DNA of 23,065 nt from a virus: positions 1 to 23,065 of IMG/VR virus record IMGVR_UViG_3300045996_000816, one strand, 5' to 3'. The notes under the pieces were generated by a model that worked only from the letters and a program-made list of their open reading frames with translations, did not search any database and was not told where the DNA came from. Positions 1,821 to 17,336 of the stretch are shown here, piece after piece. Position 1 is the first letter of the stretch, and every line of letters begins with the position of its first letter. The position numbers and the translations under genes were made by a program.

Positions 1821-2014
1821 CCGACGACCCGAAGGTGACCGACATCAGCACCCCGCACGTGGGCAATCCCGGTGAGGTGGTGGTGACCAGGATGACTTAC
1901 GGAACGCTGTTCTCTGAGGAGACGGCTGTCCGTGGGCCCAACGGGAAGATGGTCAAGGTGGTGAAGGGCTCTGCCGTGGTGCGGCATCGGGGTGGGGTCG
2001 ATTACGGCTCCTAG
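1817..2014 (+). CDS. Hypothetical 65-aa protein
   Basis: The ATG at 1817 overlaps the stop of the preceding gene (ATGA), which favours it over the in-frame upstream ATG at 1793. The protein is small, mixed beta/charged, without membrane segments or cysteines. The middle (GPNGKMVKVVKGSAVV) looks like a beta-hairpin. It overlaps the start of the large terminase by 23 nt in another frame, suggesting coupled translation of the packaging operon. Function unknown. Confidence 0.6.
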   Translation: MTDDPKVTDISTPHVGNPGEVVVTRMTYGTLFSEETAVRGPNGKMVKVVKGSAVVRHRGGVDYGS

Positions 2015-3572
2015 CGTTCAACTCGACCAGGCGAGGCTCCAGCAGGAAGCCACCAGACGACTGGCGCGTGAGTACTTCCTGCCGTTCGTCAAGTACACGA
2101 AGAAGGACTACCAGGCCGAGCGCGTCCACAAGTACGTCGCCAAGCGGCTTCAGCAGTTCGTGGAGGACTGCGAGCAGAAGCGGGCGCCGCGGCTGATCTT
2201 CAAGATGCCGCCCCAGCACGGGAAGAGTGAGCAGGGCTCGCGGCGGCTTCCTGGGTGGATCTTGGGCCGCAATCCTCGCTGGCGCATAGGGCTCATGTCC
2301 TACGGCGCCGACTGGGCCCGCAGGCTGGCAAGGGACGCGCGAGACGTGTTCACCAGCGAGGAGTACCAGGAGGTCTTCCCTGGGCTGGAGCTCGACCCCA
2401 GCAGCACGGCGGTAGATGATTGGGCGCTGACGCGGAAGTGCGGCGGTGGCGGGATGACCGCTGTCGGTCGAGACGGCGCGATTACGGGCCGGTCGCTGGA
2501 AGTCCTGATTGTGGACGACCCGGTCAAGAACCAGACGGACGCCGACAGCGATACGGAACGCGAGTTGACGTGGGCCAACTGGACGGGTTTCCGCAACCGG
2601 GTACAGCACGGCGGCGGGGTACTGATCGTGGCCACCCAGTGGCACCACGACGACCTGATTGGGCGACTGCTCCAGTGGGCGAAGGACCACCCGGACGCTG
2701 ACCAGTACGAAGTCATCAACCTCACGGCGCTGGCCGAGGAAGGCGATCCGCTGGAGCGAGCACTGGGCGAGGCCCTGGCCCCCAGCCGGTACGACGTAGC
2801 CGACCTCCTCAAACTCAAGGCCTCCATGCCTGACCGCGATTGGCAGGCGCTCTACTGTGGGCGCCCGAGCGCGGAAGAGGGCGCGATCTTCAACCGGGAG
2901 TGGTTCCAACTCGAAGACGACCCCCACGCACCGGGTTTCATCTTCCAAACCGCTGATACGGCCTACAGCCTCAAGACGACGGCTGACTACAGCGTGATCC
3001 AGACATGGCGGCGCGAGAAGAACGCCTACCGCCTGCTGGACGTCTACCGGGCCCGTTGTGAGTTGCCTGAGTTGAAGCGCCAGATGCAGCGCCTGGCGAG
3101 GGAATGGAAGCCCCTGGCGATCTGGGTTGAGGACATTGGCTCAGGCAAGAGCCTCATCCAGGAACTGCGCGAGCAGACCATGCTGCCCGTTCTGGCGTGG
3201 AAGCCCGACCGCGACAAGGTGAGTCGCGCACACGCCGTGACGCCCCTGTTTGCCGCTGGCAAGGTGCGGTTCCCGAAATGGGCCCCCTGGCTCAGCGCCT
3301 ACCTGACCGAACTCGAAAACTTCCCCCTGGCCGCCCATGACGACCAGGTAGACGCGACCACGATGGCGCTCACCCTCCACGCCGAGGAAGAGCAGCCGCT
3401 GACCCAGCCGGTGAAGCAGGACTTCACCTACGACGAACAGGCGGCCGAGGACGAAGCCACGGTGAGCCTGATGGACGAATTGACCGGGAAGCCCGCGATC
3501 CGCGTGGCCTTTACCGAGATGGTGGAACAGCGCCAGCGGAGGGAACAGCAATTTGCCGACGCCCTCCCTTGA
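1992..3572 (+). CDS. terL: Terminase large subunit (packaging ATPase and nuclease)
   Basis: A 526-aa motor protein that pumps DNA into the procapsid and cuts it. The N-terminal ATPase has a Walker A PPQHGKS (residues 73-79), Walker B LIVDDP (172-177, Asp175/Asp176) and a coupling-type motif ATQW (214-217). The C-terminal RNase-H-like nuclease shows TADTA (Asp322), WVEDIGSG (Glu380/Asp381) and HDDQVDA (Asp450, Asp451, Asp454), the expected acidic metal-binding set. Length is typical. The start is a GTG overlapping the upstream gene; the ribosome site is weak, so translation is probably coupled. The stop overlaps the portal start by 20 nt. All key residues are present, so the enzyme looks active. 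Confidence 0.96.
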   Translation: MGSITAPSVQLDQARLQQEATRRLAREYFLPFVKYTKKDYQAERVHKYVAKRLQQFVEDCEQKRAPRLIFKMPPQHGKSEQGSRRLPGWILGRNPRWRIGLMSYGADWARRLARDARDVFTSEEYQEVFPGLELDPSSTAVDDWALTRKCGGGGMTAVGRDGAITGRSLEVLIVDDPVKNQTDADSDTERELTWANWTGFRNRVQHGGGVLIVATQWHHDDLIGRLLQWAKDHPDADQYEVINLTALAEEGDPLERALGEALAPSRYDVADLLKLKASMPDRDWQALYCGRPSAEEGAIFNREWFQLEDDPHAPGFIFQTADTAYSLKTTADYSVIQTWRREKNAYRLLDVYRARCELPELKRQMQRLAREWKPLAIWVEDIGSGKSLIQELREQTMLPVLAWKPDRDKVSRAHAVTPLFAAGKVRFPKWAPWLSAYLTELENFPLAAHDDQVDATTMALTLHAEEEQPLTQPVKQDFTYDEQAAEDEATVSLMDELTGKPAIRVAFTEMVEQRQRREQQFADALP

Positions 3573-5595
3573 TCTCGATGAGCTGAGCGATTCCGAAGTC
3601 CTCGACCTCTTCCAGAGCATCAAAGACTCCTGGCGCCCGCGAAACGACAAGATCGAGGCAGCGAAAGAGCTGCGCGAGCTTCGGGATAAGGTGCCGATCC
3701 CGAAGGGGTGGAAGCGCGCCAACGTCAAGGACGTGCACTCCAACCTGGCCAAGGAGATCCCTGCCCGTGTTACGGGCACCTTGACCCTCAAGGAGCCCCA
3801 GTACAGCCGCCTGGCGCCTGATGACGACATCTCCATCAAGGAGAAGGCCACTCGGGTGGAGCGCCACCTGCAGGCCCGCTTCCAGTACGACCGTCGCACG
3901 GCGCTCCCTGGCAAGAACGCCTGGACCTTCACGGTCGATCAGATGATCAACAAGGGCGCCGCGGTGATGGGCAGCATCTTCGCTCCCCACGCCTGGGCGG
4001 GTGCCCCGGTGTTCCTCGAAGACGGGAAGATTCGGCGGGAGTTCTGGCGAGACGACAAGGGCCAGCCGGTTGAGGACGAAGAGGCCATCGATGAGGCGGC
4101 CACCGCTCGTGCTTACGAGCGCAAGGTGGACCTGCACCGTTCGCGCTCAAAGCCCCCCGTCAGTCGGCGCCTCATCGAGACCGAGTACACCTACCCGGTT
4201 TTCCTTGAGGATCGGATGCTCGGCATGTTCATCGAGCGCCCGGCCACGTTGCTTGAGGTGCGAGCGGGTGGCTTCAACCTCCCGCTGTCCGGTGGGGTAG
4301 AGAAGCTGAGCGGCAAGGCGGGAATCGTGGAGTTCCACACCCCCAATCGGTGCCGTTACTACTGGGAGAACACCCCGCTAGAGCACGAGGAGTACGGAAC
4401 GGAAGGCATCGTCACGAACTACGGGTTCGTGCCCTTCGCGTACCGCACGGGCCTTGAGGGCGGCTCCCTCGACTGGGGGAGCTACGGGCTGCCTCTGCTC
4501 GATCTGGTGGACGCCAATATCCGCCTGATCAACATGATGCTGACGTACCGGCTGCACGCCATGTACGCGGCGTCCTACCCCTCCTGGTTCATCAAGTACA
4601 TCCCCAATCCCAACGGCGGCCCGACCGTCGAAGTCCGCAACGGTAAGGACGGCAAAGTCCTCAACAAGTGGGACTTCGAGAGCGGCACCATCATGGATTT
4701 CGGCAAGGACAAAGAGGTAATGCCGTTCACCCATCCTGGGCTCGGCATCGACTTCGACAAGCTTCTGCAGTACCAGGTGGAAGAGGTACACCGGATCATT
4801 CCGCGCACCCTCCAGGGTGAAGCCACGAGCTCGGGCTACAACACGGCCCAGAGCACGGTCCAGGCGAAATCGATCTTCGGCCCCATCACCGATGGGCTGG
4901 AGCTGCTTCTGGAAGAGACGGCCAGCATGGATATGCGCCACATCGGCGAGCGTGTCCCTGGCCCGGTCTGGCTGGAGTACGAAGGCCGCCCAGACGGAGC
5001 CGCCCGTCGAGGTGTGAGCCTTGTGCGGGTCGAGAAGAGCGATATCGCCGAGTACTACGGCATTCGCGTCACCATCGACCGCGAGCTGGACGACATCACG
5101 CGCGGCACCTTCGCTTCGAACATGAAGGCCGCGGGCATCTTCGATGACGAAGAGGCCTACTACATGGCTAACCCCACGGGCGACTACGAAGCCCACAAGA
5201 TGCGCCAGATCCGCGATCGCGTCTGGAACAGTGAACAGGTGCAGCTGGCGCTCGAAACAAAGGCCATCAAGCGCTTCGGGCTGGCGGATGCCGTGGCTGA
5301 GGCCCAGGCGATGAGCCAGATCGTCATGGGGCCAGACGGCACGCCCCTGGTGAAGCAGCAGAGCGGTTCGCTCGCTGGCCCTGGTATCGGCAGTCTTCCC
5401 TCAGCGCAGGGGGCTCTAGGCGCGTCCAGTGGCCGCCAGGGCCAGGCCAACCTCGACAGCACCAACAACCCCACCATCGATCAGCCCGCACCGACCCCAA
5501 CCGGTCGAAGCCGTGGACGCCGTCGCGGTGGCGCCATCCCTGATGCCCCACAGCGGCAACCGGTCAGGCCGACGCCGAGCAATGCCGCAGCGTAA
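3553..5595 (+). CDS. Portal protein
   Basis: This 680-aa protein should form the dodecameric ring at the capsid vertex through which DNA enters and leaves. The start is a TTG at 3553, supported by GGAGGGA (3538-3544) 8 nt upstream; it overlaps the terL end. The sequence has the portal-type alternation of charged helices. A long helical stretch DLVDANIRLINMMLTYRL (about residues 317-334) is followed by a beta region, then RIIPRTLQGEATSSGYNTAQST (about 417-438), a portal-like loop. The last ~75 residues are Gly/Ser/Gln/Pro/Arg-rich and disordered. The size is on the large side, typical of podovirus portals with a C-terminal barrel. Position directly after TerL is the strongest support. Confidence 0.88.
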   Translation: MPTPSLDLDELSDSEVLDLFQSIKDSWRPRNDKIEAAKELRELRDKVPIPKGWKRANVKDVHSNLAKEIPARVTGTLTLKEPQYSRLAPDDDISIKEKATRVERHLQARFQYDRRTALPGKNAWTFTVDQMINKGAAVMGSIFAPHAWAGAPVFLEDGKIRREFWRDDKGQPVEDEEAIDEAATARAYERKVDLHRSRSKPPVSRRLIETEYTYPVFLEDRMLGMFIERPATLLEVRAGGFNLPLSGGVEKLSGKAGIVEFHTPNRCRYYWENTPLEHEEYGTEGIVTNYGFVPFAYRTGLEGGSLDWGSYGLPLLDLVDANIRLINMMLTYRLHAMYAASYPSWFIKYIPNPNGGPTVEVRNGKDGKVLNKWDFESGTIMDFGKDKEVMPFTHPGLGIDFDKLLQYQVEEVHRIIPRTLQGEATSSGYNTAQSTVQAKSIFGPITDGLELLLEETASMDMRHIGERVPGPVWLEYEGRPDGAARRGVSLVRVEKSDIAEYYGIRVTIDRELDDITRGTFASNMKAAGIFDDEEAYYMANPTGDYEAHKMRQIRDRVWNSEQVQLALETKAIKRFGLADAVAEAQAMSQIVMGPDGTPLVKQQSGSLAGPGIGSLPSAQGALGASSGRQGQANLDSTNNPTIDQPAPTPTGRSRGRRRGGAIPDAPQRQPVRPTPSNAAA

Positions 5596-5896
5596 CTGGC
5601 TTGACGGTGCCCTCGACATGGTGGTGGACGCGATGAACGACGGCGGCAACCGTATCGACAAGCTCTCTCAGGACCAAGCCCCTTTCGACAGCGTGAAGCT
5701 CACGCCCGACGAAGAGAACCTGATCTACGACAACCCTTCGGTGCTCTACCCCGACGAGACGGACCCCGAGACAGGCTTGCCGCTGACCAACGCGCAGGCC
5801 GCCCAGAAGCTGCTCCAGGAAAAGGGAGCCGTCGAGTACGTGCGCTTCGTGACCGAGATGGAGAAGCGCCGCGCAAAGGAGGCTGGCCTTGTCTGA
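5582..5896 (+). CDS. Hypothetical 104-aa acidic protein
   Basis: I chose the ATG at 5582, overlapping the portal stop by 14 nt. The in-frame ORF extends to 5429, but that part is Pro/Arg/Ser-rich in a way expected from the shadow of the portal frame. The protein is acidic (TPDEENLIYDNPSVLYPDE), with a helical C-terminus (QAAQKLLQEKGAVEYVRFVTEMEKRR) likely to form a coiled coil. It overlaps the next gene by 8 nt. It is probably a minor head protein or assembly factor, judged only from position. Confidence 0.65.
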   Translation: MPQRNWLDGALDMVVDAMNDGGNRIDKLSQDQAPFDSVKLTPDEENLIYDNPSVLYPDETDPETGLPLTNAQAAQKLLQEKGAVEYVRFVTEMEKRRAKEAGLV

Positions 5897-7325
5897 GTTC
5901 CCATGGGAAGACACGAAGAGCACTCTTGAAGCGCAGCACGGTGTGGCCACGGTCATCGGGAGGGACGCCGAGTACGGCGAGATCACCTACAAGTTCAACG
6001 ACGGGTCTGTTGCTGTCATTGACAGCCAGGGCAACGTGGATGTCCGCAACAGCCACTTCTCTGCTGTGCGGCCTCCGGCTAAGCCAGATGGCCCGTCCGA
6101 TACCCAGCGGGGCTCTGGTTCCACGACTGTCCCCCCTCGCCCGCCTACAGCGGACCGTGCCAGCCTTGAGCGGCACTACACCGCCGTTCAGGCCGTCTTC
6201 AACGACCCGAACACCAGCACCGAGGAGCGAGCGCAGGCCCGCACCGAGCTGAACTGGATCACGCAGCAGATCCAATCGGACGCCAACAAGCCCGCCCGCG
6301 GTGAGCCCGGTACGGAGTTCATGGGCCCAGGCGGTGTGCCTCTCGGCGTGTTCAAGCCTGACGGCACCCTCAAGGACTACGACCAGAAGGAACAGGCCGC
6401 GGCGATCGCGCGCATCAACAAGGAGCGCGCAGCTTCCGGGCAGGCACCGCTCCAGACTCCCGCTACCGGCGGCAGTGGTGGTTCAGGCGGTAGTTCTGGT
6501 GGTGGTGGTTCAGCCTCCGTCAACACGCAGATTGCGGCCAATGGTGGCAAGCAGATCAGTGTGGACAAGAACGAGTCCGTGCTGGTGTTCCAGATGCCAG
6601 ACGGCTCACTTCGCGTAGAGCCCAACCCGGCGTACGAGGGCCCCAAGCCCAAAGACCCGCAACTGTTCAACACCACGGAAGGCATCGTCTCTGTCGGCCC
6701 TGATGGTCAGGCCGCCATGGTCTGGCAGAAGCCCGACGACAAAGACCTGTTCGGTCAGGCTGTGCAGCGCTACCACGCCAAAGCCGCCGAGGTTGACCAG
6801 ATGGTGGCTGCTGGCCAGCTCAGCGGGGAAGAGGCCGAACGCATCAAGGCGAACCTGCGCGGCATCGTGGAGACGGCTTCCAGGGGCTTTACGCCAACCG
6901 AGGCCGCTAGCGCGAGTGTGGCGCAGGGCAATCTCGATGTGAACCGCCAGAACGCGGAGACATCTCGGCGCCGGGACGCGCAGGCCGCCCGCGAAGGTAA
7001 GGCCCGCCCCTTCTTCGATCAGGCCAACGCCAACCGCGACATGCTGACCAGAGCTGCCGACAAAGGCGTGTACGTGAAGGGCAGCGCGTCGCTGATCTTC
7101 GACCCGCTCCAGGTGGCGTACTCGGCTCTGACCGATGGCTTCAAGGACGGCACGCTTGATCCCCAGTTCGCACCTGCTGGCGTGGCATTGCCTCAGCCTG
7201 CTCCTGCTGGCCCTCCTGCTCCCACGCCTGCCGGCCCTCCAGCCCCTCCCCCGCTCGACCCCACCCTTGCGCTCCCCGTGTCCAGTGGATTCGGGATGCC
7301 GCCTGCTCCTTCACGGAGGTACTAG
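5889..7325 (+). CDS. Low-complexity, probable virion-associated protein
   Basis: A 478-aa protein of unknown family. The TTG start has an excellent ribosome site (AAAGGAGG, 5876-5883) and overlaps the previous stop. Residues 1-60 look like a small beta domain (ATVIGRDAEYGEITYKF, then VAVIDSQGNV). A Gly/Ser linker covers 193-209. A second beta segment, ISVDKNESVLVFQMPDGSL, lies at 223-241. Residues 285-400 are helical and charged. The C-terminus (about 430-465) is Pro/Ala-rich. Modular, linker-joined architecture between the portal and the large polyvalent-type protein suggests an internal or ejected virion protein. No catalytic motif is evident. Confidence 0.7.
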   Translation: MSEFPWEDTKSTLEAQHGVATVIGRDAEYGEITYKFNDGSVAVIDSQGNVDVRNSHFSAVRPPAKPDGPSDTQRGSGSTTVPPRPPTADRASLERHYTAVQAVFNDPNTSTEERAQARTELNWITQQIQSDANKPARGEPGTEFMGPGGVPLGVFKPDGTLKDYDQKEQAAAIARINKERAASGQAPLQTPATGGSGGSGGSSGGGGSASVNTQIAANGGKQISVDKNESVLVFQMPDGSLRVEPNPAYEGPKPKDPQLFNTTEGIVSVGPDGQAAMVWQKPDDKDLFGQAVQRYHAKAAEVDQMVAAGQLSGEEAERIKANLRGIVETASRGFTPTEAASASVAQGNLDVNRQNAETSRRRDAQAAREGKARPFFDQANANRDMLTRAADKGVYVKGSASLIFDPLQVAYSALTDGFKDGTLDPQFAPAGVALPQPAPAGPPAPTPAGPPAPPPLDPTLALPVSSGFGMPPAPSRRY

Positions 7326-7329
7326 CCTG

Positions 7330-8034
7330 ATGCCGTACGACGATCAGGGCAACTGGATCTATGAGCCTCCGGCTCCACCCGATTACCCCGGTCAGTACCA
7401 GGACGATGGGACGCTGGCCCCGCCGTGGAGCCCTTCGCCGGGCAACGTGGGGTCAGGTGCGGTATCCAACCCGCAGACACCCGGAACGTACCCAGGCCCT
7501 CCTCCCCCGATTCCAGGCTACGGCGAACCCGGCGGCCCTGGATACGACGGTGGTCATGATCCAGGCGGAGAAGGCGGCGGTGGCGGCGATGGTGGCGTGG
7601 AGCAACCTCCGCCGTCACCCACTGACCCTACGGTCTGGACGATTGGACTCGACGGCAAGCCAGTGCAAGTGCCGCAGTCCGTAGCCGACCAGCTGCGCGG
7701 GTTGAGGGAGACCCAGGAGTCCGTCCTGTCGGCGCAAGCAGAAACGACCCGCCAGCAGCAGCAGACCGAGAATGACCAGAAGCAACAGGCCCTCGACATC
7801 CAGAAGGCTAACCAGGCGGCGAGCGCGGCCTATCAACAGTCGATGCTTGTCTACAACAACCAGCAGTTGGCCCAAGCCGCTGCCAGAGACGCTGCCAACC
7901 AGGAACTGCAGCGCCAGCAACTGGAGTTCCAGAAGTCACAGGCGGCGGCGCAGATCGGCCTCCAGCGTGAGCAGGCCGACCAGCAGCGCCGCCAGATGCG
8001 GCCTCGCCGCGTAGCCGCGATCCGCTACCGCTAA
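7330..8034 (+). CDS. Pro/Gly-rich protein with Gln-rich coiled coil
   Basis: A 234-aa protein of unknown family. GGAGGT (7315-7320) lies 9 nt before the ATG, and the stop of the preceding gene is only 4 nt upstream. In-frame sequence extends left to 7135, but it is a shadow of the preceding gene. Residues 1-105 are Pro/Gly/Tyr-rich with a run of glycines near 82-86, presumably unfolded. Residues 115-225 are a Gln/Ala/Arg-rich helix with coiled-coil character. The last residues are basic (RPRRVAAIRYR) and could touch DNA. Disordered arm plus helix suits an internal core or ejection-associated protein. Adjacent to the 1463-aa gene (19-nt gap). Confidence 0.7.
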   Translation: MPYDDQGNWIYEPPAPPDYPGQYQDDGTLAPPWSPSPGNVGSGAVSNPQTPGTYPGPPPPIPGYGEPGGPGYDGGHDPGGEGGGGGDGGVEQPPPSPTDPTVWTIGLDGKPVQVPQSVADQLRGLRETQESVLSAQAETTRQQQQTENDQKQQALDIQKANQAASAAYQQSMLVYNNQQLAQAAARDAANQELQRQQLEFQKSQAAAQIGLQREQADQQRRQMRPRRVAAIRYR

Positions 8035-8053: not shown

Positions 8054-11000
8054 ATGTCGCTGTACCTCACGAAGGACAAGTACCAGCGCTTCAACGCGGA
8101 CACGATCAGCGCCAACCTCAGCGGTGAGCTTGAGGACGAACTGGCGCAGATCGCCCCGCCGACACCGGTTACGCCGCAGAACGTGGTTCTGCCCAGTGGC
8201 GATGAGTTGCTGGGCAGCTTCCAGAACGACGTGGACCACACGCCGTTCGTTCCTCCCAACATGGCGGGTGGTCCCCCAGCGTCCCCCCCCGCGCTTGAGC
8301 AGTCGGCCCCTCTCCCGATGGCTCCCCCCGCCAGCAGCCCTTCGCCCGACTACGGGCGCGACATCGTGAGCCAGTTCGCTGGCGACATCATGGATCTGGT
8401 GGCCGGCTACGGCGCCCAGCAGCGCGCACCGACAAGCCGTGCGCCGCTCAGCCCACTCACGGAGGCCCCAGTGGGCCCCGTGCAACAGGAGAGCACCCCC
8501 GATTGGCAGGCCCAGGAAGCCGCGAAATGGGGCGGCCAGGCGGCTGAGAGCCCCTACGTGGGCGTGACGCCAAACCGTGCGCCAGCGGAGCCGGCTGAAG
8601 TACTTGGCCGAGGCAACCAGCTCGTCAGCGATTTCTCTCGCGATCTCGCGGACCTCGTTATCCCCCGCCCCGTGGCCGACGCCGAGGTACCGGTTATTGG
8701 TGGCCGAGTCGGTGACCTAGCGGGCGACATCATCAACCCCGTCAATGCCGTAGCGGGCGAGGCTCTGGGGCGTGTGGCAGGCGCAGGCATCAAGGCCGCG
8801 GCTGGCTCCGCTCCGGTGCGCGCTGCCGCCGACACGATCCGCGAAGGTGCCGAGAAGCTACCCGCCACGCTGGCTGAGTACGCCGATAGTCTGAAGCTGC
8901 CTAGCCTGACCAGCGGCCAGCCTGCTGAAGCGAGCGCCGACTTCGCCAGTGGAGGGATGCGACGCTTCTTTCACGGCACCGGGGACGCATTCGATTCACC
9001 GAACCCGGCCAAGTTTGACGAGAACGGCTTGTTCGGGCCGGCCTACTACGTCACCGATGACCCGCGCGTGGCGGCCAGTTACGCAGACACGCGCAGTCCC
9101 ATCGTTGACGGTGCAGCGAGCCGCATAGAGGCTGCCCGATCCAACATTGCCTACGGCAAGGACGTGCTGGCAAGGGTCGCGGCCAAACCGTCCCCTGATG
9201 ACGCAGGCTACGTTGCTAAGACCCGCCAGATGATCGCTGAGTCCGAGTCTGAGCTTGCACGGCTGCTCGATGTGAATAGCGGCGGCAACGTTCGCCCGGT
9301 GGACGTGCCTCGCGGCCTGAACCTTCTCGATGTCGATACACCCGCTGGCAAGGCCATCTGGGATGAAGTCGCGGAGCCCCCCAGGATCACTGATCGAGGG
9401 GGCCGCTGGACTGGCGAATACGAAGTACCGGACAAGCGCTCAGCAGTTGCCGAACTCGCCCGTAGAGGGTATGACGGCATTCGGTACGCGGGCGGCAAGC
9501 GGGTACCCCTCAAGGCCGACGACGGCAGCGATATCGAGCACGTTGCCCTTGCCATCTTCCCTGAGTCTCTAGGCAAAATCCGCAACGCTCTCAGCGGGCG
9601 GGCCGGTGGTGCCGCCTCCGCTGAGTTCGGCTCAACCCTCGGCGGTGGTGCGACGGGCGGGCTTGGGGCGGCTGCGACCACCGACCCCGACGACCCGAAC
9701 CGTGGAGCCAAGATCGCTGCTGGCGCTGCCGCTGGGGCGCTGGCAGGCATGGGCGCCGCTCGGTTTGCGGGGCGGGGCGCTCCGCCCTCTGGCCCAACCA
9801 CCGCACTGGCAAGGGCGGCCGATGCAGGTACAGACCTCGCCAAGACCGGAGCCGCCAAGGGCGATGGGACGATGGGTGATCTGGACGACATCACCGCGAT
9901 GTGGCAGCGCAACCGAGACAGTCGGTCGCCGTTGAACCGCATCCGTGAAGCCGTCAGCACGATCCCTGAAGCCGTTGAGCGCCAGGTGGCCGACCGCTTC
10001 GCCGACATCAACCGGCTCGCTGGCAGCAACGCTGAGGAAGCCGTGGCGCTGTTCCAGGGCCGCGCCGGGGCTGCCATGCAGCGGATCAAGGACGAGTACA
10101 CGCCGCTCTACGAGACGTTGCGGGGCAAGGCGTCGAACGGTGCTACGCAGCTCGACAACTTCAACACCTACGTCAAGCTCAACCGCGATCTCGAAGTGGC
10201 GAACGCCAAGGGCACCGCGGGCGGCCTCCGCCGCTCATCCGCTGGCGGCACTGGCGCCGCACGGGCGCAGCAGTTGCTCGTGGAGATGCAGGAGCGGCTG
10301 AGCCCCGATGAGTGGGGCGCCATCGTCAACGCCGACAAGATCAGGCAGCAGGCGCTCGATTCCATGCTGGACGAGAAGGCCCGCTCCGGGCTGATCTCCA
10401 ACGAGATGCGCGAATGGCTGCTGCGCGAGTACCCGCACTACAACCCGACCGTGGCCATGCAGAACATCGAGAAGGCCGCCGGCCAGGTGATGGGCATCGG
10501 CAAGAAGCTGAACCAGCCGACGAACACGATGCGGCGCCTCATGGAAGACGGCGCCACGGCCGACACCGAAGAGCCGCTTCTCTCGGCCCTGCGCCACACG
10601 CTGCAGGGTGACGTGGCCACACGGCGCAACGACGCCATCAGGACCATCATCCACGGCCTGGAGAGCAACGGCATCGAAGGCGTGGAGCGCCTGAAGACCG
10701 CAGCCCCAGACGCCAAGGGTGCGCTCTCTTTCTGGGAGAACGGCCAGCGAGTCTCCTACAAGGTGCCTGAGACGGTGGAGCGCGCCGCGAAGGCGATGGA
10801 CGACACCTCGCTCTCCGCCGCAACACGGATCTTTATGGCCACTGGCCGCGGGATCAACGCCCCGCTGCGAGTCGGTGCTACCGCGCTGTCCCCTGCCTTC
10901 GTGGTCACGAACGCGCTGGCCGACGCCGTGACGACCTTCATCAAGGAAGGCGCGAAGACAACCGCGAAGATCCCGAAGATGTACGTAGAGGCCGCCCGCC

Positions 11001-12445
11001 AGGGCCCTCTCTACCAGAAGTACATGCGCGCTGGCGGGTCGATGGACGGCTACTTCGGCGGCGATGCGGACGACATCGAGAAGATGGTCCAGAACGCGGG
11101 TGGCCTCCTGGTCAAGGACACTGCGTTCTGGAAGCGGTTGCTCTACGCAACGCGCGACCTCGCCACACTGAAGCCCATCACCAAGGCCGGGCAGGTCATC
11201 GAGCTCGGGCCGAGGCTGGCCTCATTCGAACGGAACCTTGAGCGTGGCAAGACAGTAGGGCAGGCGGCACTCGACGGCCGTCGAGTGACGATCGATTTCG
11301 CCCGCGGCGGCGAAGCGGTGAAGCTCGCCAATAGCTGGGTGCTGTTCCTCAATGCCCGTGCCCAGGGCACGCTGAACATGGGCCGACTGATGCGCGACAA
11401 CCCGGCGGCTCGCTGGCGCCTGGCGAGCGTCGCTGGCACTGCGGCCGCAACCTACGCCTGGAACCGTCAGTTCCCCGAATACGCCGACGTGCCCGACTAC
11501 ATCAAGGACGGCAACATGGTCGTCATGCTGCCCGGTTCCGAGAAGGACCCGGACGGCCCTGGCTACAAGAAGCTCAACTACATCGCCATCCCGCTCCGTG
11601 AGTGGAGCGTTTTCGCTTCTCCGCTGATCAAGCAGATGGAGAACATGGACGGCACCGACCCGCGCGGGTGGGATGAGTTCGCAGGCTCGTTGGCCAGGAG
11701 CATGACCCCGATCTCCGGCGAGACGGCAACTTCGGCAGTGGGCGGGATGATCCCAGCGCTGGCCCGGACCCCGATTGAGGTAGACACAAACACCAAGTTC
11801 TTCACGAACTCCCCCATCGTGTCCAGGCGATTTGAGGGCTTGCCGCCTTCAGCTCAGCGCGATGACCGCAGCAGCGCAGTCTCGAAGTTGATCGCCGACA
11901 ACGTGGGGGGCTCCCCGAAGGGGATCGACTTCGCCATCAACGAAAACCTGGGCGGCCTCGGACGTGTGATCACGGGCGAGCCAAACCCATTCCGGGGCGT
12001 GGTGAAGAACTCAGGCGGGCAACTTGAAGAAGACGCCTATGCCGAATTGGATCGTCGCTTCAACGGTCAGCAGGAAGCACGCGCGAGGGAAGTACGGGCG
12101 ATGCCTGAGTACCAGCGCGCTACCCCTGACCGCCAGAACGGGATGCTCAAAATCGCCATGGATGACCTCCGTGAGGACATCAAGGCAGAACTCGGCATCC
12201 AGTCCAACCCTGCCGACAAGGGGTTGCCCGAGCGCTTCCGTGGCGTCACCGACAAGAAGGAAGAGGCCCGCATCGGCGCCGCGATCTCGAAGGTGAACGC
12301 CTACGAGCGTGACCCGCGCAACGCGCCGCGCCCATCAGCTGACGAACGGCGTCTAGCGAGCCGCTACGAGGGCCGCGTGAACCCTGCGTACACCAGGGCC
12401 CAGCGCGAGCAGGAGAGCGAGAACCGCGCTATTCGAGCCCGCTAG
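8054..12445 (+). CDS. Large polyvalent-type protein with ADP-ribosyltransferase-like domain
   Basis: A 1463-aa protein; GGGAGG (8041-8046) fixes the ATG. Residues 1-290 are Pro/Ala-rich with helices. Residues ~300-510 resemble the ART domains of phage polyvalent proteins: FHGTG (His307), GPAYYVTDDP (Tyr331/332), RGYDGIRYAGG and a closing EHVALAIFPE (Glu495), matching the H-Y-E class that transfers ADP-ribose from NAD. A Gly/Ala-rich stretch (551-573) could insert in membranes. Residues 600-890 are helical. From ~890 to 1200 comes an LPD38-like region (ENGQRVSYKVPE, SPAFVVTNALADA, VTIDFARGGEAVKLANS), and the tail is charged. Known polyvalent proteins are thought to enter the cell with the DNA. 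Position between portal and scaffold fits an ejected internal protein. The ART call is from motifs; the target is unknown. Confidence 0.72.
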   Translation: MSLYLTKDKYQRFNADTISANLSGELEDELAQIAPPTPVTPQNVVLPSGDELLGSFQNDVDHTPFVPPNMAGGPPASPPALEQSAPLPMAPPASSPSPDYGRDIVSQFAGDIMDLVAGYGAQQRAPTSRAPLSPLTEAPVGPVQQESTPDWQAQEAAKWGGQAAESPYVGVTPNRAPAEPAEVLGRGNQLVSDFSRDLADLVIPRPVADAEVPVIGGRVGDLAGDIINPVNAVAGEALGRVAGAGIKAAAGSAPVRAAADTIREGAEKLPATLAEYADSLKLPSLTSGQPAEASADFASGGMRRFFHGTGDAFDSPNPAKFDENGLFGPAYYVTDDPRVAASYADTRSPIVDGAASRIEAARSNIAYGKDVLARVAAKPSPDDAGYVAKTRQMIAESESELARLLDVNSGGNVRPVDVPRGLNLLDVDTPAGKAIWDEVAEPPRITDRGGRWTGEYEVPDKRSAVAELARRGYDGIRYAGGKRVPLKADDGSDIEHVALAIFPESLGKIRNALSGRAGGAASAEFGSTLGGGATGGLGAAATTDPDDPNRGAKIAAGAAAGALAGMGAARFAGRGAPPSGPTTALARAADAGTDLAKTGAAKGDGTMGDLDDITAMWQRNRDSRSPLNRIREAVSTIPEAVERQVADRFADINRLAGSNAEEAVALFQGRAGAAMQRIKDEYTPLYETLRGKASNGATQLDNFNTYVKLNRDLEVANAKGTAGGLRRSSAGGTGAARAQQLLVEMQERLSPDEWGAIVNADKIRQQALDSMLDEKARSGLISNEMREWLLREYPHYNPTVAMQNIEKAAGQVMGIGKKLNQPTNTMRRLMEDGATADTEEPLLSALRHTLQGDVATRRNDAIRTIIHGLESNGIEGVERLKTAAPDAKGALSFWENGQRVSYKVPETVERAAKAMDDTSLSAATRIFMATGRGINAPLRVGATALSPAFVVTNALADAVTTFIKEGAKTTAKIPKMYVEAARQGPLYQKYMRAGGSMDGYFGGDADDIEKMVQNAGGLLVKDTAFWKRLLYATRDLATLKPITKAGQVIELGPRLASFERNLERGKTVGQAALDGRRVTIDFARGGEAVKLANSWVLFLNARAQGTLNMGRLMRDNPAARWRLASVAGTAAATYAWNRQFPEYADVPDYIKDGNMVVMLPGSEKDPDGPGYKKLNYIAIPLREWSVFASPLIKQMENMDGTDPRGWDEFAGSLARSMTPISGETATSAVGGMIPALARTPIEVDTNTKFFTNSPIVSRRFEGLPPSAQRDDRSSAVSKLIADNVGGSPKGIDFAINENLGGLGRVITGEPNPFRGVVKNSGGQLEEDAYAELDRRFNGQQEARAREVRAMPEYQRATPDRQNGMLKIAMDDLREDIKAELGIQSNPADKGLPERFRGVTDKKEEARIGAAISKVNAYERDPRNAPRPSADERRLASRYEGRVNPAYTRAQREQESENRAIRAR

Positions 12446-12675: not shown

Positions 12676-13473
12676 ATGCCCGACGAGACTGCGCCCGTCG
12701 TGAGCGGAGCCCCGGAGACGCCGGCTGATTCAGCCCCAGCGCCATCCAGCACCGACACTCAGACCAGCAGCACCGAGTCAACGGAAGCCACCACCTCCCA
12801 GCCCCCTGCCGACGCCACTCCCAAGGAGAAGGCAGACTGGAAAGCTAGGTACCGCGACGACCCCGACTTCCGGGCGTTCGTAGACGCGGAAAACCAGCGA
12901 TCCAACGCCAAGGCTCGCAAGCGCTGGGAACGCGAGAACACCAAGCTCACCGCCAAGGACATCGTGGAGAAAGAGGACGCCGAGGCTGCCCTCCAGTTCA
13001 CCAAGTCCGTGGCGGACTCATCGGATGACGATGACGACGATGAGCCAGGCGTCCCCTCCAAAGCGATCCGCGAGAAACACAACGCCCTGGTCAACGACGG
13101 GTTCCACGAGACCCCCGAGTACCGCGCGTTGTGGGAGTCCGACCGAGCCGGCCTGACCAAGGCGTTCAACAGCAAGACGCTTCCCCAGTTCAAGGCATGG
13201 GTCCGCGATCAGGGCATCGAAACCCTCGTCAGCAAGCGTGTGGCGGAAGAGCTGAAGAAGCAGCTTCCCGATCGAGCGAAGGCCGAAGCCACGCAGATGA
13301 CGAACGAGGCCCTGAAGAACGTCGCCGTTCCCCTCGGGGGCGGTGGCGCACCGAACGGCGCCCTCACTCTTGAGCGTTACAACAGCGATTCCGCACTGCG
13401 GGCAGAGCTGCGTAAGACGCCAGAGGGCCGCCGAAAGATCGATGAGATGATGGCCCGCGCAGCCGGAGGCTAA
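12676..13473 (+). CDS. Scaffolding protein
   Basis: A 265-aa protein directly before the capsid gene, the usual place for a scaffold. TAGGAG (12665-12670) precedes the ATG. The N-terminal 50 residues are Ser/Thr/Pro/Ala-rich and disordered. A charged helical middle follows (DWKARYRDDPDFRAFVDAENQ), then an acidic run with six Asp (117-122). The C-terminal half is helical and Lys/Arg/Glu-rich (SKRVAEELKKQLPDRAKAE) and ends in TPEGRRKIDEMMARAAGG. Acidic, helical, low-complexity proteins of this size are typical capsid scaffolds that bind coat protein through a basic C-terminal helix. No protease motif is seen. Confidence 0.82.
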   Translation: MPDETAPVVSGAPETPADSAPAPSSTDTQTSSTESTEATTSQPPADATPKEKADWKARYRDDPDFRAFVDAENQRSNAKARKRWERENTKLTAKDIVEKEDAEAALQFTKSVADSSDDDDDDEPGVPSKAIREKHNALVNDGFHETPEYRALWESDRAGLTKAFNSKTLPQFKAWVRDQGIETLVSKRVAEELKKQLPDRAKAEATQMTNEALKNVAVPLGGGGAPNGALTLERYNSDSALRAELRKTPEGRRKIDEMMARAAGG

Positions 13474-16541: not shown

Positions 16542-17336
16542 ATGGCTGAGCTTCTGTTTCCCCGTTCAGGCACGCTCCTGGAAGAGCGCACCCTGCGGCG
16601 CGTTGGTGCCGCCAACTCGCCCCTGAACCAGTACCTGCGGCGTTTTGCGTCCCATTCGAAGCGCTACTTCCGCGACGACTTCGAGGGCGACACCATCAAC
16701 CTCGACAACTACGCCCTGGGCAACGGGGGCGGCGCGTCATCGGTGGCCTTTGCGGCCAACGTGCAGGAAGGCGGCGCGATTCTGGCGACCACAGGCACGG
16801 CTAACGACGCGACCGCCAGTGAGTCGCTGATCATGCCGCTGACCTGGTACGGCGACCGCTTCGCGGGAATGGAGGTGCTGTTCAAGCCCTCCGCACTGAC
16901 CGAGATCAAGGTGGAGATTGGGTTCATCGACGGCGTTCCCGCGTCCAACACCTCCGGTGTGAACAACATCTCCACGCCAACCTTCTACTCGGCCGACGCG
17001 GCGTTGTTCCACTTCAACCACACGGGCTCCACGACCACCTGCGGCTTCTACACCGTGGGCTCAACGTCTAACCAGCCAGACGCCGTTACGGCCATCACTA
17101 GCACCGTGTCGTCCAGCGCCTGGAACCGCGTTCGGGTGCAGTTGTTCACCAACAACGCCGCCTGTTGGCTTAACGGCCAACTGGTGGCCAACCACCACAC
17201 CGACGCAAATGGGTACGTGGAGGGTGGGGTAGCCCTGGCCCCGTGGGTCTACGTCCGGGCCAACAGCGCCACCAGCAAGACCCTCTCCGTGGACCAGATC
17301 GAAGTCTGGGGTGACCGCCCCGCCCTCGCGGGCTAA
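16542..17336 (+). CDS. Lectin/ConA-like beta-sandwich virion protein
   Basis: A 264-aa protein with GAAGGAGAG upstream of the ATG. After a helical, basic 40-residue leader (TLLEERTLRRVGAANSPLNQYLRR), the rest is beta-rich with a jelly-roll-like order. DDFEGDTINLDNYALGN (45-61) opens it, as in many ConA-like/LamG-type domains. Later segments are FAGMEVLFKPSALTEIKVEIGF, WNRVRVQLFTNNAACWLNGQ and KTLSVDQIEVWGD. That pattern suggests a carbohydrate-binding or decoration protein on the head or tail. It follows the glycosyltransferase by 33 nt, so the two may be functionally linked. Fold is inferred from strand pattern only. Confidence 0.62.
   Translation: MAELLFPRSGTLLEERTLRRVGAANSPLNQYLRRFASHSKRYFRDDFEGDTINLDNYALGNGGGASSVAFAANVQEGGAILATTGTANDATASESLIMPLTWYGDRFAGMEVLFKPSALTEIKVEIGFIDGVPASNTSGVNNISTPTFYSADAALFHFNHTGSTTTCGFYTVGSTSNQPDAVTAITSTVSSSAWNRVRVQLFTNNAACWLNGQLVANHHTDANGYVEGGVALAPWVYVRANSATSKTLSVDQIEVWGDRPALAG

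What the first reader, a model, noticed from the sequence alone, without database searches (positions are those of the whole stretch)
8950..9600. ADP-ribosyltransferase-like domain inside a giant, probably ejected phage protein
Residues ~300-510 of the 1463-aa protein show, in order, FHGTG (His307), GPAYYVTDDP (Tyr331/332), RGYDGI and EHVALAIF (Glu495): the H-Y-E layout of ART domains found in phage polyvalent proteins. The gene sits between portal and scaffold, where short-tailed phages often encode internal proteins ejected with DNA. An ART delivered this way could reprogram the host or disarm defence before any phage gene is expressed. The family resemblance is from known motifs; delivery is inference.
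Basis: partly seen in the sequence, partly recalled or inferred. Interest (0 to 1): 0.75.

Follow-up and report, generated by a model that had tools for sequence, protein, structure and literature searches.

The report
ADP-ribosyltransferase inside phage ejection protein
A probable short-tailed virus of bacteria encodes a giant protein, likely packed in its capsid and pushed into the host with the DNA, that carries a divergent NAD-using (ADP-ribosyltransferase-fold) domain as an exchangeable cargo, which would be a way to act on the cell before any viral gene is read.

Summary
Residues 300-515 of the 1463-aa protein carry the four motifs at the stated positions. AlphaFold2 gives an ART fold (pLDDT 80): every full-domain PDB match is an ART-superfamily protein, led by MbcT (Z 9.7), ParT and diphtheria toxin. 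Some 25 viral relatives share the whole domain (about 31-37% identity). His307 and Tyr332 are essentially invariant.

Two corrections. (1) The domain falls below Pfam's ART-PolyVal cut-off (18.9 against 31.2 bits) and is a separate clade. (2) Glu495 is not invariant (14 E, 3 Q, 1 L in 18 curated homologues) and is out of register with the canonical strand-5 acid. His496 is invariant (18/18). So 'H-Y-E' is doubtful.

Delivery is supported indirectly. The C-terminal 850 aa are an LPD38 chassis (E 3e-19). Its homologues fill the internal-virion-protein slot of podoviruses, and a published LPD38 protein (phage JC1 gp69) was found in virions. The same ART sits on a second chassis matching 'internal virion protein' PHROG 6651, usually after SLT and C39-like wall-enzyme modules. 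Gene order is TerL-portal-giant-scaffold-capsid.

Catalysis, target, packaging and ejection of this protein are untested. Verdict: a new variant of the known polyvalent-ART theme.

The parts
8054..12445 (+). giant protein, 1463 aa (ART + LPD38 chassis)
   Evidence: single ORF; LPD38 PF18857 E 2.9e-19; PHROG 9854 E 2.3e-24 over residues 620-1304; relatives L008-L087
8054..8923 (+). residues 1-290: Pro/Ala-rich N-terminal region, no recognised domain; the SLT and C39-like modules that siblings carry upstream of the ART are absent
8951..9598 (+). ART-fold domain, residues 300-515
8969..8983 (+). strand 1 motif FHGTG; His307 (8972-8974), near-invariant
9035..9064 (+). strand 2 motif GPAYYVTDDP; Tyr332 (9047-9049), invariant
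9101..9280 (+). helical-hairpin insert in the ART (about residues 350-409); length varies among homologues
   Evidence: AF2 secondary structure; matches coiled coils only; alignment
9467..9496 (+). GYDGIRYAGG, clade-defining motif (G472, D474, G475, G480, G481), followed by R483
9536..9541 (+). Glu495-His496 at the start of the last strand; His496 invariant in the clade, Glu495 variable
9635..9778 (+). Gly/Ala-rich hydrophobic stretch after the ART (about residues 528-575), possible membrane-active linker
   Evidence: hydropathy
9899..12442 (+). C-terminal chassis (residues 616-1463), mostly helical, includes LPD38
11477..11974 (+). LPD38 domain, residues 1142-1307
   Evidence: PF18857, 70.3 bits against cut-off 27
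1992..3572 (+). terminase large subunit
   Evidence: Terminase_6C E 3.7e-18; phrog_38 E 5.8e-99
3553..5595 (+). portal protein
   Evidence: profile match E 5e-50 to L179 protein, which matches portal phrog_156 at E 3.2e-4
5889..7325 (+). low-complexity head-region protein conserved next to the giant gene in relatives
   Evidence: alignment with L176 and L172 neighbours
7330..8034 (+). Gln/Ala-rich coil-like protein (the ORF opens at 7135; a start near 7330 is likelier)
   Evidence: sequence; L172 and L176 have a comparable gene
12676..13473 (+). probable scaffold protein (by position and composition)
   Evidence: gene order in L172 and L176
13509..14408 (+). major capsid protein
   Evidence: phrog_267 E 5.7e-32

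Best explanation
The gene encodes an internal virion (ejection) protein of a probably short-tailed phage, built as N-terminal tether, ART domain, Gly/Ala linker and an 850-aa helical LPD38 chassis. The chassis is most likely assembled in the head near the portal and expelled through the tail at infection. The ART rides along, reaches the NAD-containing cytoplasm and mono-ADP-ribosylates (or otherwise uses NAD on) a host target before phage transcription. Shown here: the ART fold, its conserved His/Tyr, its wide occurrence in phage giants, the chassis homology and the gene order. Shown elsewhere for a relative: an LPD38 giant in podovirus virions. Inferred: packaging and ejection of this protein, entry to the cytoplasm, catalysis and target.
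For: ART fold: AF2 pLDDT 80, pTM 0.69. Full-domain PDB matches are all ARTs: MbcT Z 9.7/134 residues, ParT 9.2, diphtheria toxin 8.8, SAIP 8.7, RES-Xre 8.0. BFVD matches, several named ART-PolyVal-like, E 1e-6 to 1e-2. Profile comparison with canonical ART-PolyVal sequences: probability 97% over the first half. Conservation: H307 in 29 of 30 filled rows, Y332 31 of 31, GYDG/GG/R483/H496 near-invariant. Delivery: LPD38 chassis. Homologue HTVC034P gp44 lies two genes after an 'internal virion protein B-like' gene, and ct8d5349 has the same order. Giants with the same ART carry a chassis matching internal virion protein phrog_6651 (E 2.9e-12) and an SLT module matching phrog_342 'internal virion protein with endolysin domain'. 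Siblings with the window's chassis carry SLT and C39-like modules, as T7 gp16 carries a transglycosylase (PMC8954989). JC1 gp69, with an LT-like and an LPD38 domain, is virion-associated by mass spectrometry (PMC9144972). The best PDB match of the chassis model is the T7 core protein (9jyy_I, Z 6.3).
Against: No sequence similarity to T7 gp16, and Z 6.3 lies within the noise for helical proteins. No acidic residue is conserved at the strand-5 register, so the domain could be a pseudoenzyme. Tail type is not determined. No virion data exist for this phage or its close relatives. The ART could remain in the periplasm, where there is little NAD. Foldseek alone gave no significant PDB match.
Confidence: 0.6

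Rival explanations
1. Pseudo-ART: the fold is kept for binding or structure (for example to NAD-related ligands or a virion partner), without catalysis.
For: The strand-5 acid is not conserved: E, Q or L at 495, and A, V or T at the canonical register. PARP9 and PARP13 are inactive ARTs with substitutions (PMC4695847).
Against: His307, Tyr332, Arg483 and His496 are conserved across divergent phages, which suggests selection for an active site. H-Y-E variants without Glu are active mono-ARTs by substrate-assisted catalysis (PMC4695847).
Confidence: 0.2
2. NAD-consuming enzyme (NADase or NAD phosphorylase, as in RES toxins) that depletes or edits NAD signals rather than modifying a macromolecule.
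For: The best structural match is the RES toxin MbcT, with RES-Xre also listed.
Against: ParT and diphtheria toxin (true transferases) are within 1 Z, so they are tied. The sequence resembles ART-PolyVal, not RES, families.
Confidence: 0.15
3. The giant is a late-expressed head protein that is not ejected; the ART acts during assembly or lysis.
For: The gene lies in the late structural block. No virion data exist for this phage.
Against: The chassis is homologous to proteins in the ejected-protein slot, the second chassis matches internal virion proteins, and wall-degrading modules occur in the same polypeptides.
Confidence: 0.12
4. Chance resemblance of short motifs; no ART domain.
For: Full-length Pfam E-values are only 0.08-0.09, and PDB Foldseek E is above 0.2.
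Against: Whole-domain homologues, conserved motifs, and ART fold matches in the PDB second look and BFVD.
Confidence: 0.02

Closest known systems
ART-PolyVal (PF18760), Tox-ART-HYD2 clade, Iyer et al. 2017 (PMC5512222)
   Same: First-half motifs YHGT...GxGxYxTDDP..A, ART fold, location in large phage polyvalent proteins
   Different: Below the family cut-off (18.9 against 31.2 bits); long helical insert; clade motif GYDGIxYxGGxR...EH; no conserved strand-5 Asp
LPD38 phage polyvalent proteins, e.g. Burkholderia phage JC1 gp69 (PMC9144972)
   Same: LPD38 near the C-terminus of a giant protein; JC1 gp69 is virion-associated
   Different: JC1 gp69 is over 4,400 aa with LT-like and DarB-like helicase/methylase modules; the window protein has an ART and no recognised wall enzyme
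T7 gp16 / podovirus ejection proteins (PMC8954989)
   Same: Large helical protein, comparable gene slot in homologues (HTVC034P), wall-degrading domain in siblings, weak best structural match
   Different: No sequence similarity; the window protein has no transglycosylase; T7 gp16 has no ART
Internal virion protein PHROG 6651 giants (L171/L186, L182 here)
   Same: Same ART clade immediately before the chassis
   Different: Different C-terminal chassis; usually also SLT and C39-like modules
T4 Alt
   Same: Virion-packaged ART that acts at the start of infection
   Different: R-S-E active site, contractile-tailed phage, not fused to an LPD38 chassis
MbcT, ParT, diphtheria toxin catalytic domain
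   Same: Fold (Z 8.1-9.7)
   Different: 12-17% identity; different biological settings

Membership tests
ART superfamily | ART fold | tested here: met
   AF2 model, full-domain PDB matches all ART; BFVD
ART superfamily (H-Y-x branch) | His in strand 1 and Tyr in strand 2 | tested here: met
   H307 and Y332 in predicted strands, near-invariant
ART superfamily (H-Y-[EDQ]) | acidic or Gln residue in strand 5 | tested here: inconclusive
   E495 is E/Q in 17 of 18 but Leu in one, variable in the wider set and two residues before the predicted strand; His496 is invariant
ART superfamily | NAD-dependent activity | not testable with these tools
   -
ART-PolyVal (PF18760) | score above curated cut-off 31.2 bits | tested here: not met
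   18.9 bits for the segment alone, 14.0 in the whole protein
ART-PolyVal / Tox-ART-HYD2 | H-Y-D active site, Asp in strand 5 | tested here: not met
   no Asp in strand EHVALAIF or conserved there in homologues; definition from PMC5512222
LPD38 phage polyvalent protein | LPD38 domain above cut-off | tested here: met
   70.3 bits against 27
LPD38 phage polyvalent protein | fusion to at least one other effector domain | tested here: met
   ART domain in the same ORF
Podovirus ejection (internal virion) protein | homology to internal virion proteins | tested here: met
   chassis homologous to HTVC034P gp44 and a ct8d5349 protein, which lie in the internal-virion gene cluster; those genes are named by annotation and position, not by experiment
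Podovirus ejection protein (T7 gp16 fold) | gp16-like structure | tested here: inconclusive
   best match 9jyy_I Z 6.3, 172 residues, within helical noise
Podovirus ejection protein | present in virions and expelled at infection | not testable with these tools
   only for a distant LPD38 relative by published mass spectrometry (PMC9144972)
Podovirus | short tail | tested here: inconclusive
   no tape-measure match in the structural genes scanned of the window or of a 44-kb sibling; window is a partial contig

The most novel reading that the evidence does not exclude
A previously undescribed ART clade with an H-Y-...-H active site (invariant His496, no required strand-5 acid) serves as exchangeable cargo of ejection proteins in phages with two different ejection chassis, next to wall-degrading modules, so one polypeptide opens the wall, helps build the DNA channel and reprograms the host by NAD chemistry before transcription.
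Probability: 0.3. Interest if true: 0.75.

Novelty: new variant of a known kind. Interest (0 to 1): 0.55.

Why it matters
Virion-delivered effectors act before host defences that sense phage expression can respond, yet few are known outside T4 Alt and the N4 RNA polymerase. A recurrent ART on ejection-protein chassis gives a tractable test of whether short-tailed phages inject NAD-using enzymes, and which host molecule they target. The clade also offers a test of catalysis without the classical glutamate.

Tried and rejected
Single-protein searches of viral contigs with the ART alone or the whole protein found nothing; degenerate motif patterns and alignments were needed. Genome contigs gave no confirmed relative for the ART or the chassis, so the host is unknown. 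Plasmids: no match. PDB by sequence: nothing for the ART or chassis. Foldseek on PDB was dominated by the helical insert and, for the chassis, by unrelated helical proteins. NCBIfam: nothing relevant. PADLOC: only weak matches to candidate systems, none for the window. A tree of 18 ART domains did not settle whether the ART moved between chassis: the least number of changes forced for the LPD38 group is 1, so a single origin is not excluded. An ROQ_II Pfam match (E 0.0066, below cut-off) was dismissed as a chance match.

Full report
Observation. The window is a 23,065-base IMG/VR virus record. ORF 8054-12445 encodes 1463 aa. In the whole protein Pfam gives a strong LPD38 match (residues 1142-1307, E 2.9e-19) and only sub-threshold hints of an ART: DUF3990 E 0.078 and ART-PolyVal E 0.088 at the same place. 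With the segment alone these are the only two families, ART-PolyVal at E 0.0028 and DUF3990 at 0.0081.

Is it an ART? A DNA pattern for YxTDDP and one for GYDGxx[YH][AV]GG in viral contigs brought in homologues, first L142, L146, L147 and L152. An alignment search then gave 40 viral loci, about 25 of them aligned over most of the domain. AlphaFold2 on residues 289-529 with 23 sequences gave pLDDT 80 and pTM 0.69. In the structural second look every match that spans the domain is an ART-superfamily protein: MbcT (6fkg, Z 9.7, 134 residues), ParT (9.2), diphtheria toxin (8.8), SAIP (8.7), RES-Xre (8.0). Nearly all other rows match only the helical insert, about residues 350-409. Viral predicted structures, several annotated ART-PolyVal-like, match at E 1e-6 to 1e-2. 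Foldseek against PDB alone was not significant, so the fold call rests on these converging lines. I put it at about 0.95.

Which ART? It is a sister of ART-PolyVal rather than a member. The published definition is H-Y-D with Asp in strand 5 (PMC5512222), and the Pfam score is below cut-off. Profile comparison with canonical members is 97% probable but covers only the first half. In 32 aligned rows His307 and Tyr332 are essentially invariant, as are G472, D474, G475, G480 and G481; R483 occurs in 29 and His496 in 30. Position 495 is E in 22, Q in 4, and R, L, T, G or P in the rest (a few of these rows, such as L208, L210 and L212, are poorly aligned). In 18 curated homologues 495 is E in 14, Q in 3 and L in 1, while 496 is H in all 18. 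In canonical ART-PolyVal sequences the acid, where present, sits four residues before the strand-ending Phe (EVVVF, EIVVF). In the window that position is Ala498. Hence Glu495 is a weak candidate for the catalytic residue and His496 a better target. H-Y-E variants lacking Glu are known to work as mono-transferases by substrate-assisted catalysis, and some are inactive (PMC4695847).

The chassis and delivery. Residues 616-1463 are homologous to giants of Pagevirus (Bacillus phages), Pelagibacter phage HTVC034P and podovirus ct8d5349. In the last two the gene lies in the internal-virion cluster, two genes after 'internal virion protein B'. Closest chassis relatives (37-47% identity) carry SLT, C39-like or NlpC/P60-like modules instead of an ART (the NlpC/P60 and GNAT readings are from sequence only). 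The same ART clade also sits before a second chassis that matches PHROG 6651 'internal virion protein' (E 2.9e-12), often with SLT and C39-like modules upstream. Of 50 LPD38-chassis records scanned, 2 (L026, L054) carry a canonical ART-PolyVal, in the same ORF as the chassis, so ART-LPD38 fusion recurs. A published LPD38 giant, JC1 gp69, is virion-associated by mass spectrometry in a podovirus (PMC9144972). The chassis model (pLDDT 72) has the T7 core protein as its best PDB match, but Z 6.3 is within helical noise and no sequence similarity was found.

Context. Gene order in the window is TerS (weak), TerL, portal (profile E 5e-50 to a protein that matches portal phrog_156), two low-complexity proteins, the giant, probable scaffold, major capsid protein. 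L176 and L172 keep TerL-portal-giant-two proteins-scaffold, and L172 also the capsid gene, so the two small genes lie after the giant there. No wall-degrading module was found elsewhere in the window, but the contig is partial. Two siblings encode serine integrases and are probably temperate. Short-tail morphology is inferred only.

Mechanism. Most likely the chassis places the protein inside the head and carries it out at infection, and the ART acts on a host target with NAD from the cytoplasm. The steps shown are the domain identity, conservation, architecture and gene order. Packaging, ejection, cytoplasmic entry, catalysis, target and timing are inferred. The main rivals are a pseudoenzyme, an NAD-consuming enzyme, and a late-acting non-ejected protein.

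Novelty. Polyvalent proteins, LPD38 and packaged ARTs are known (PMC5512222, PMC9503650). New here are a distinct ART clade with an unusual conserved EH/H signature, its recurrence on two ejection-protein chassis beside wall-enzyme modules, and the correction of the catalytic residue. Whether the ART moved between chassis could not be settled by a tree.

Noticed in passing
L010 7121-12703, L012 6761-12703, L008 8360-12736: Sibling giants with the window's chassis carry C39-like, NlpC/P60-like plus GNAT-like (L012), or SLT plus C39-like modules at the N-terminus instead of an ART: a modular cargo slot.
   Followed up: partly
L203 7945-12342: A giant with what look like two copies of the window-type ART (matches at residues 344-681 and 697-1027).
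   Followed up: no
L215 720-2117; L218 12438-13976: Serine integrases (phrog_95) in sibling phages, suggesting that the group is temperate.
   Followed up: partly
window 16542-17336: 264-aa protein with a weak 3-keto-disaccharide hydrolase match (E 0.0013, below cut-off), possibly a receptor-binding or tail component.
   Followed up: no
window 9635-9778 (residues 528-575): Gly/Ala-rich hydrophobic stretch right after the ART; L186 and L196 homologues have a similar one, possibly a membrane-active segment.
   Followed up: partly
L103 ORF of 1052 aa: Two consecutive ART-PolyVal-like domains in one open frame.
   Followed up: no
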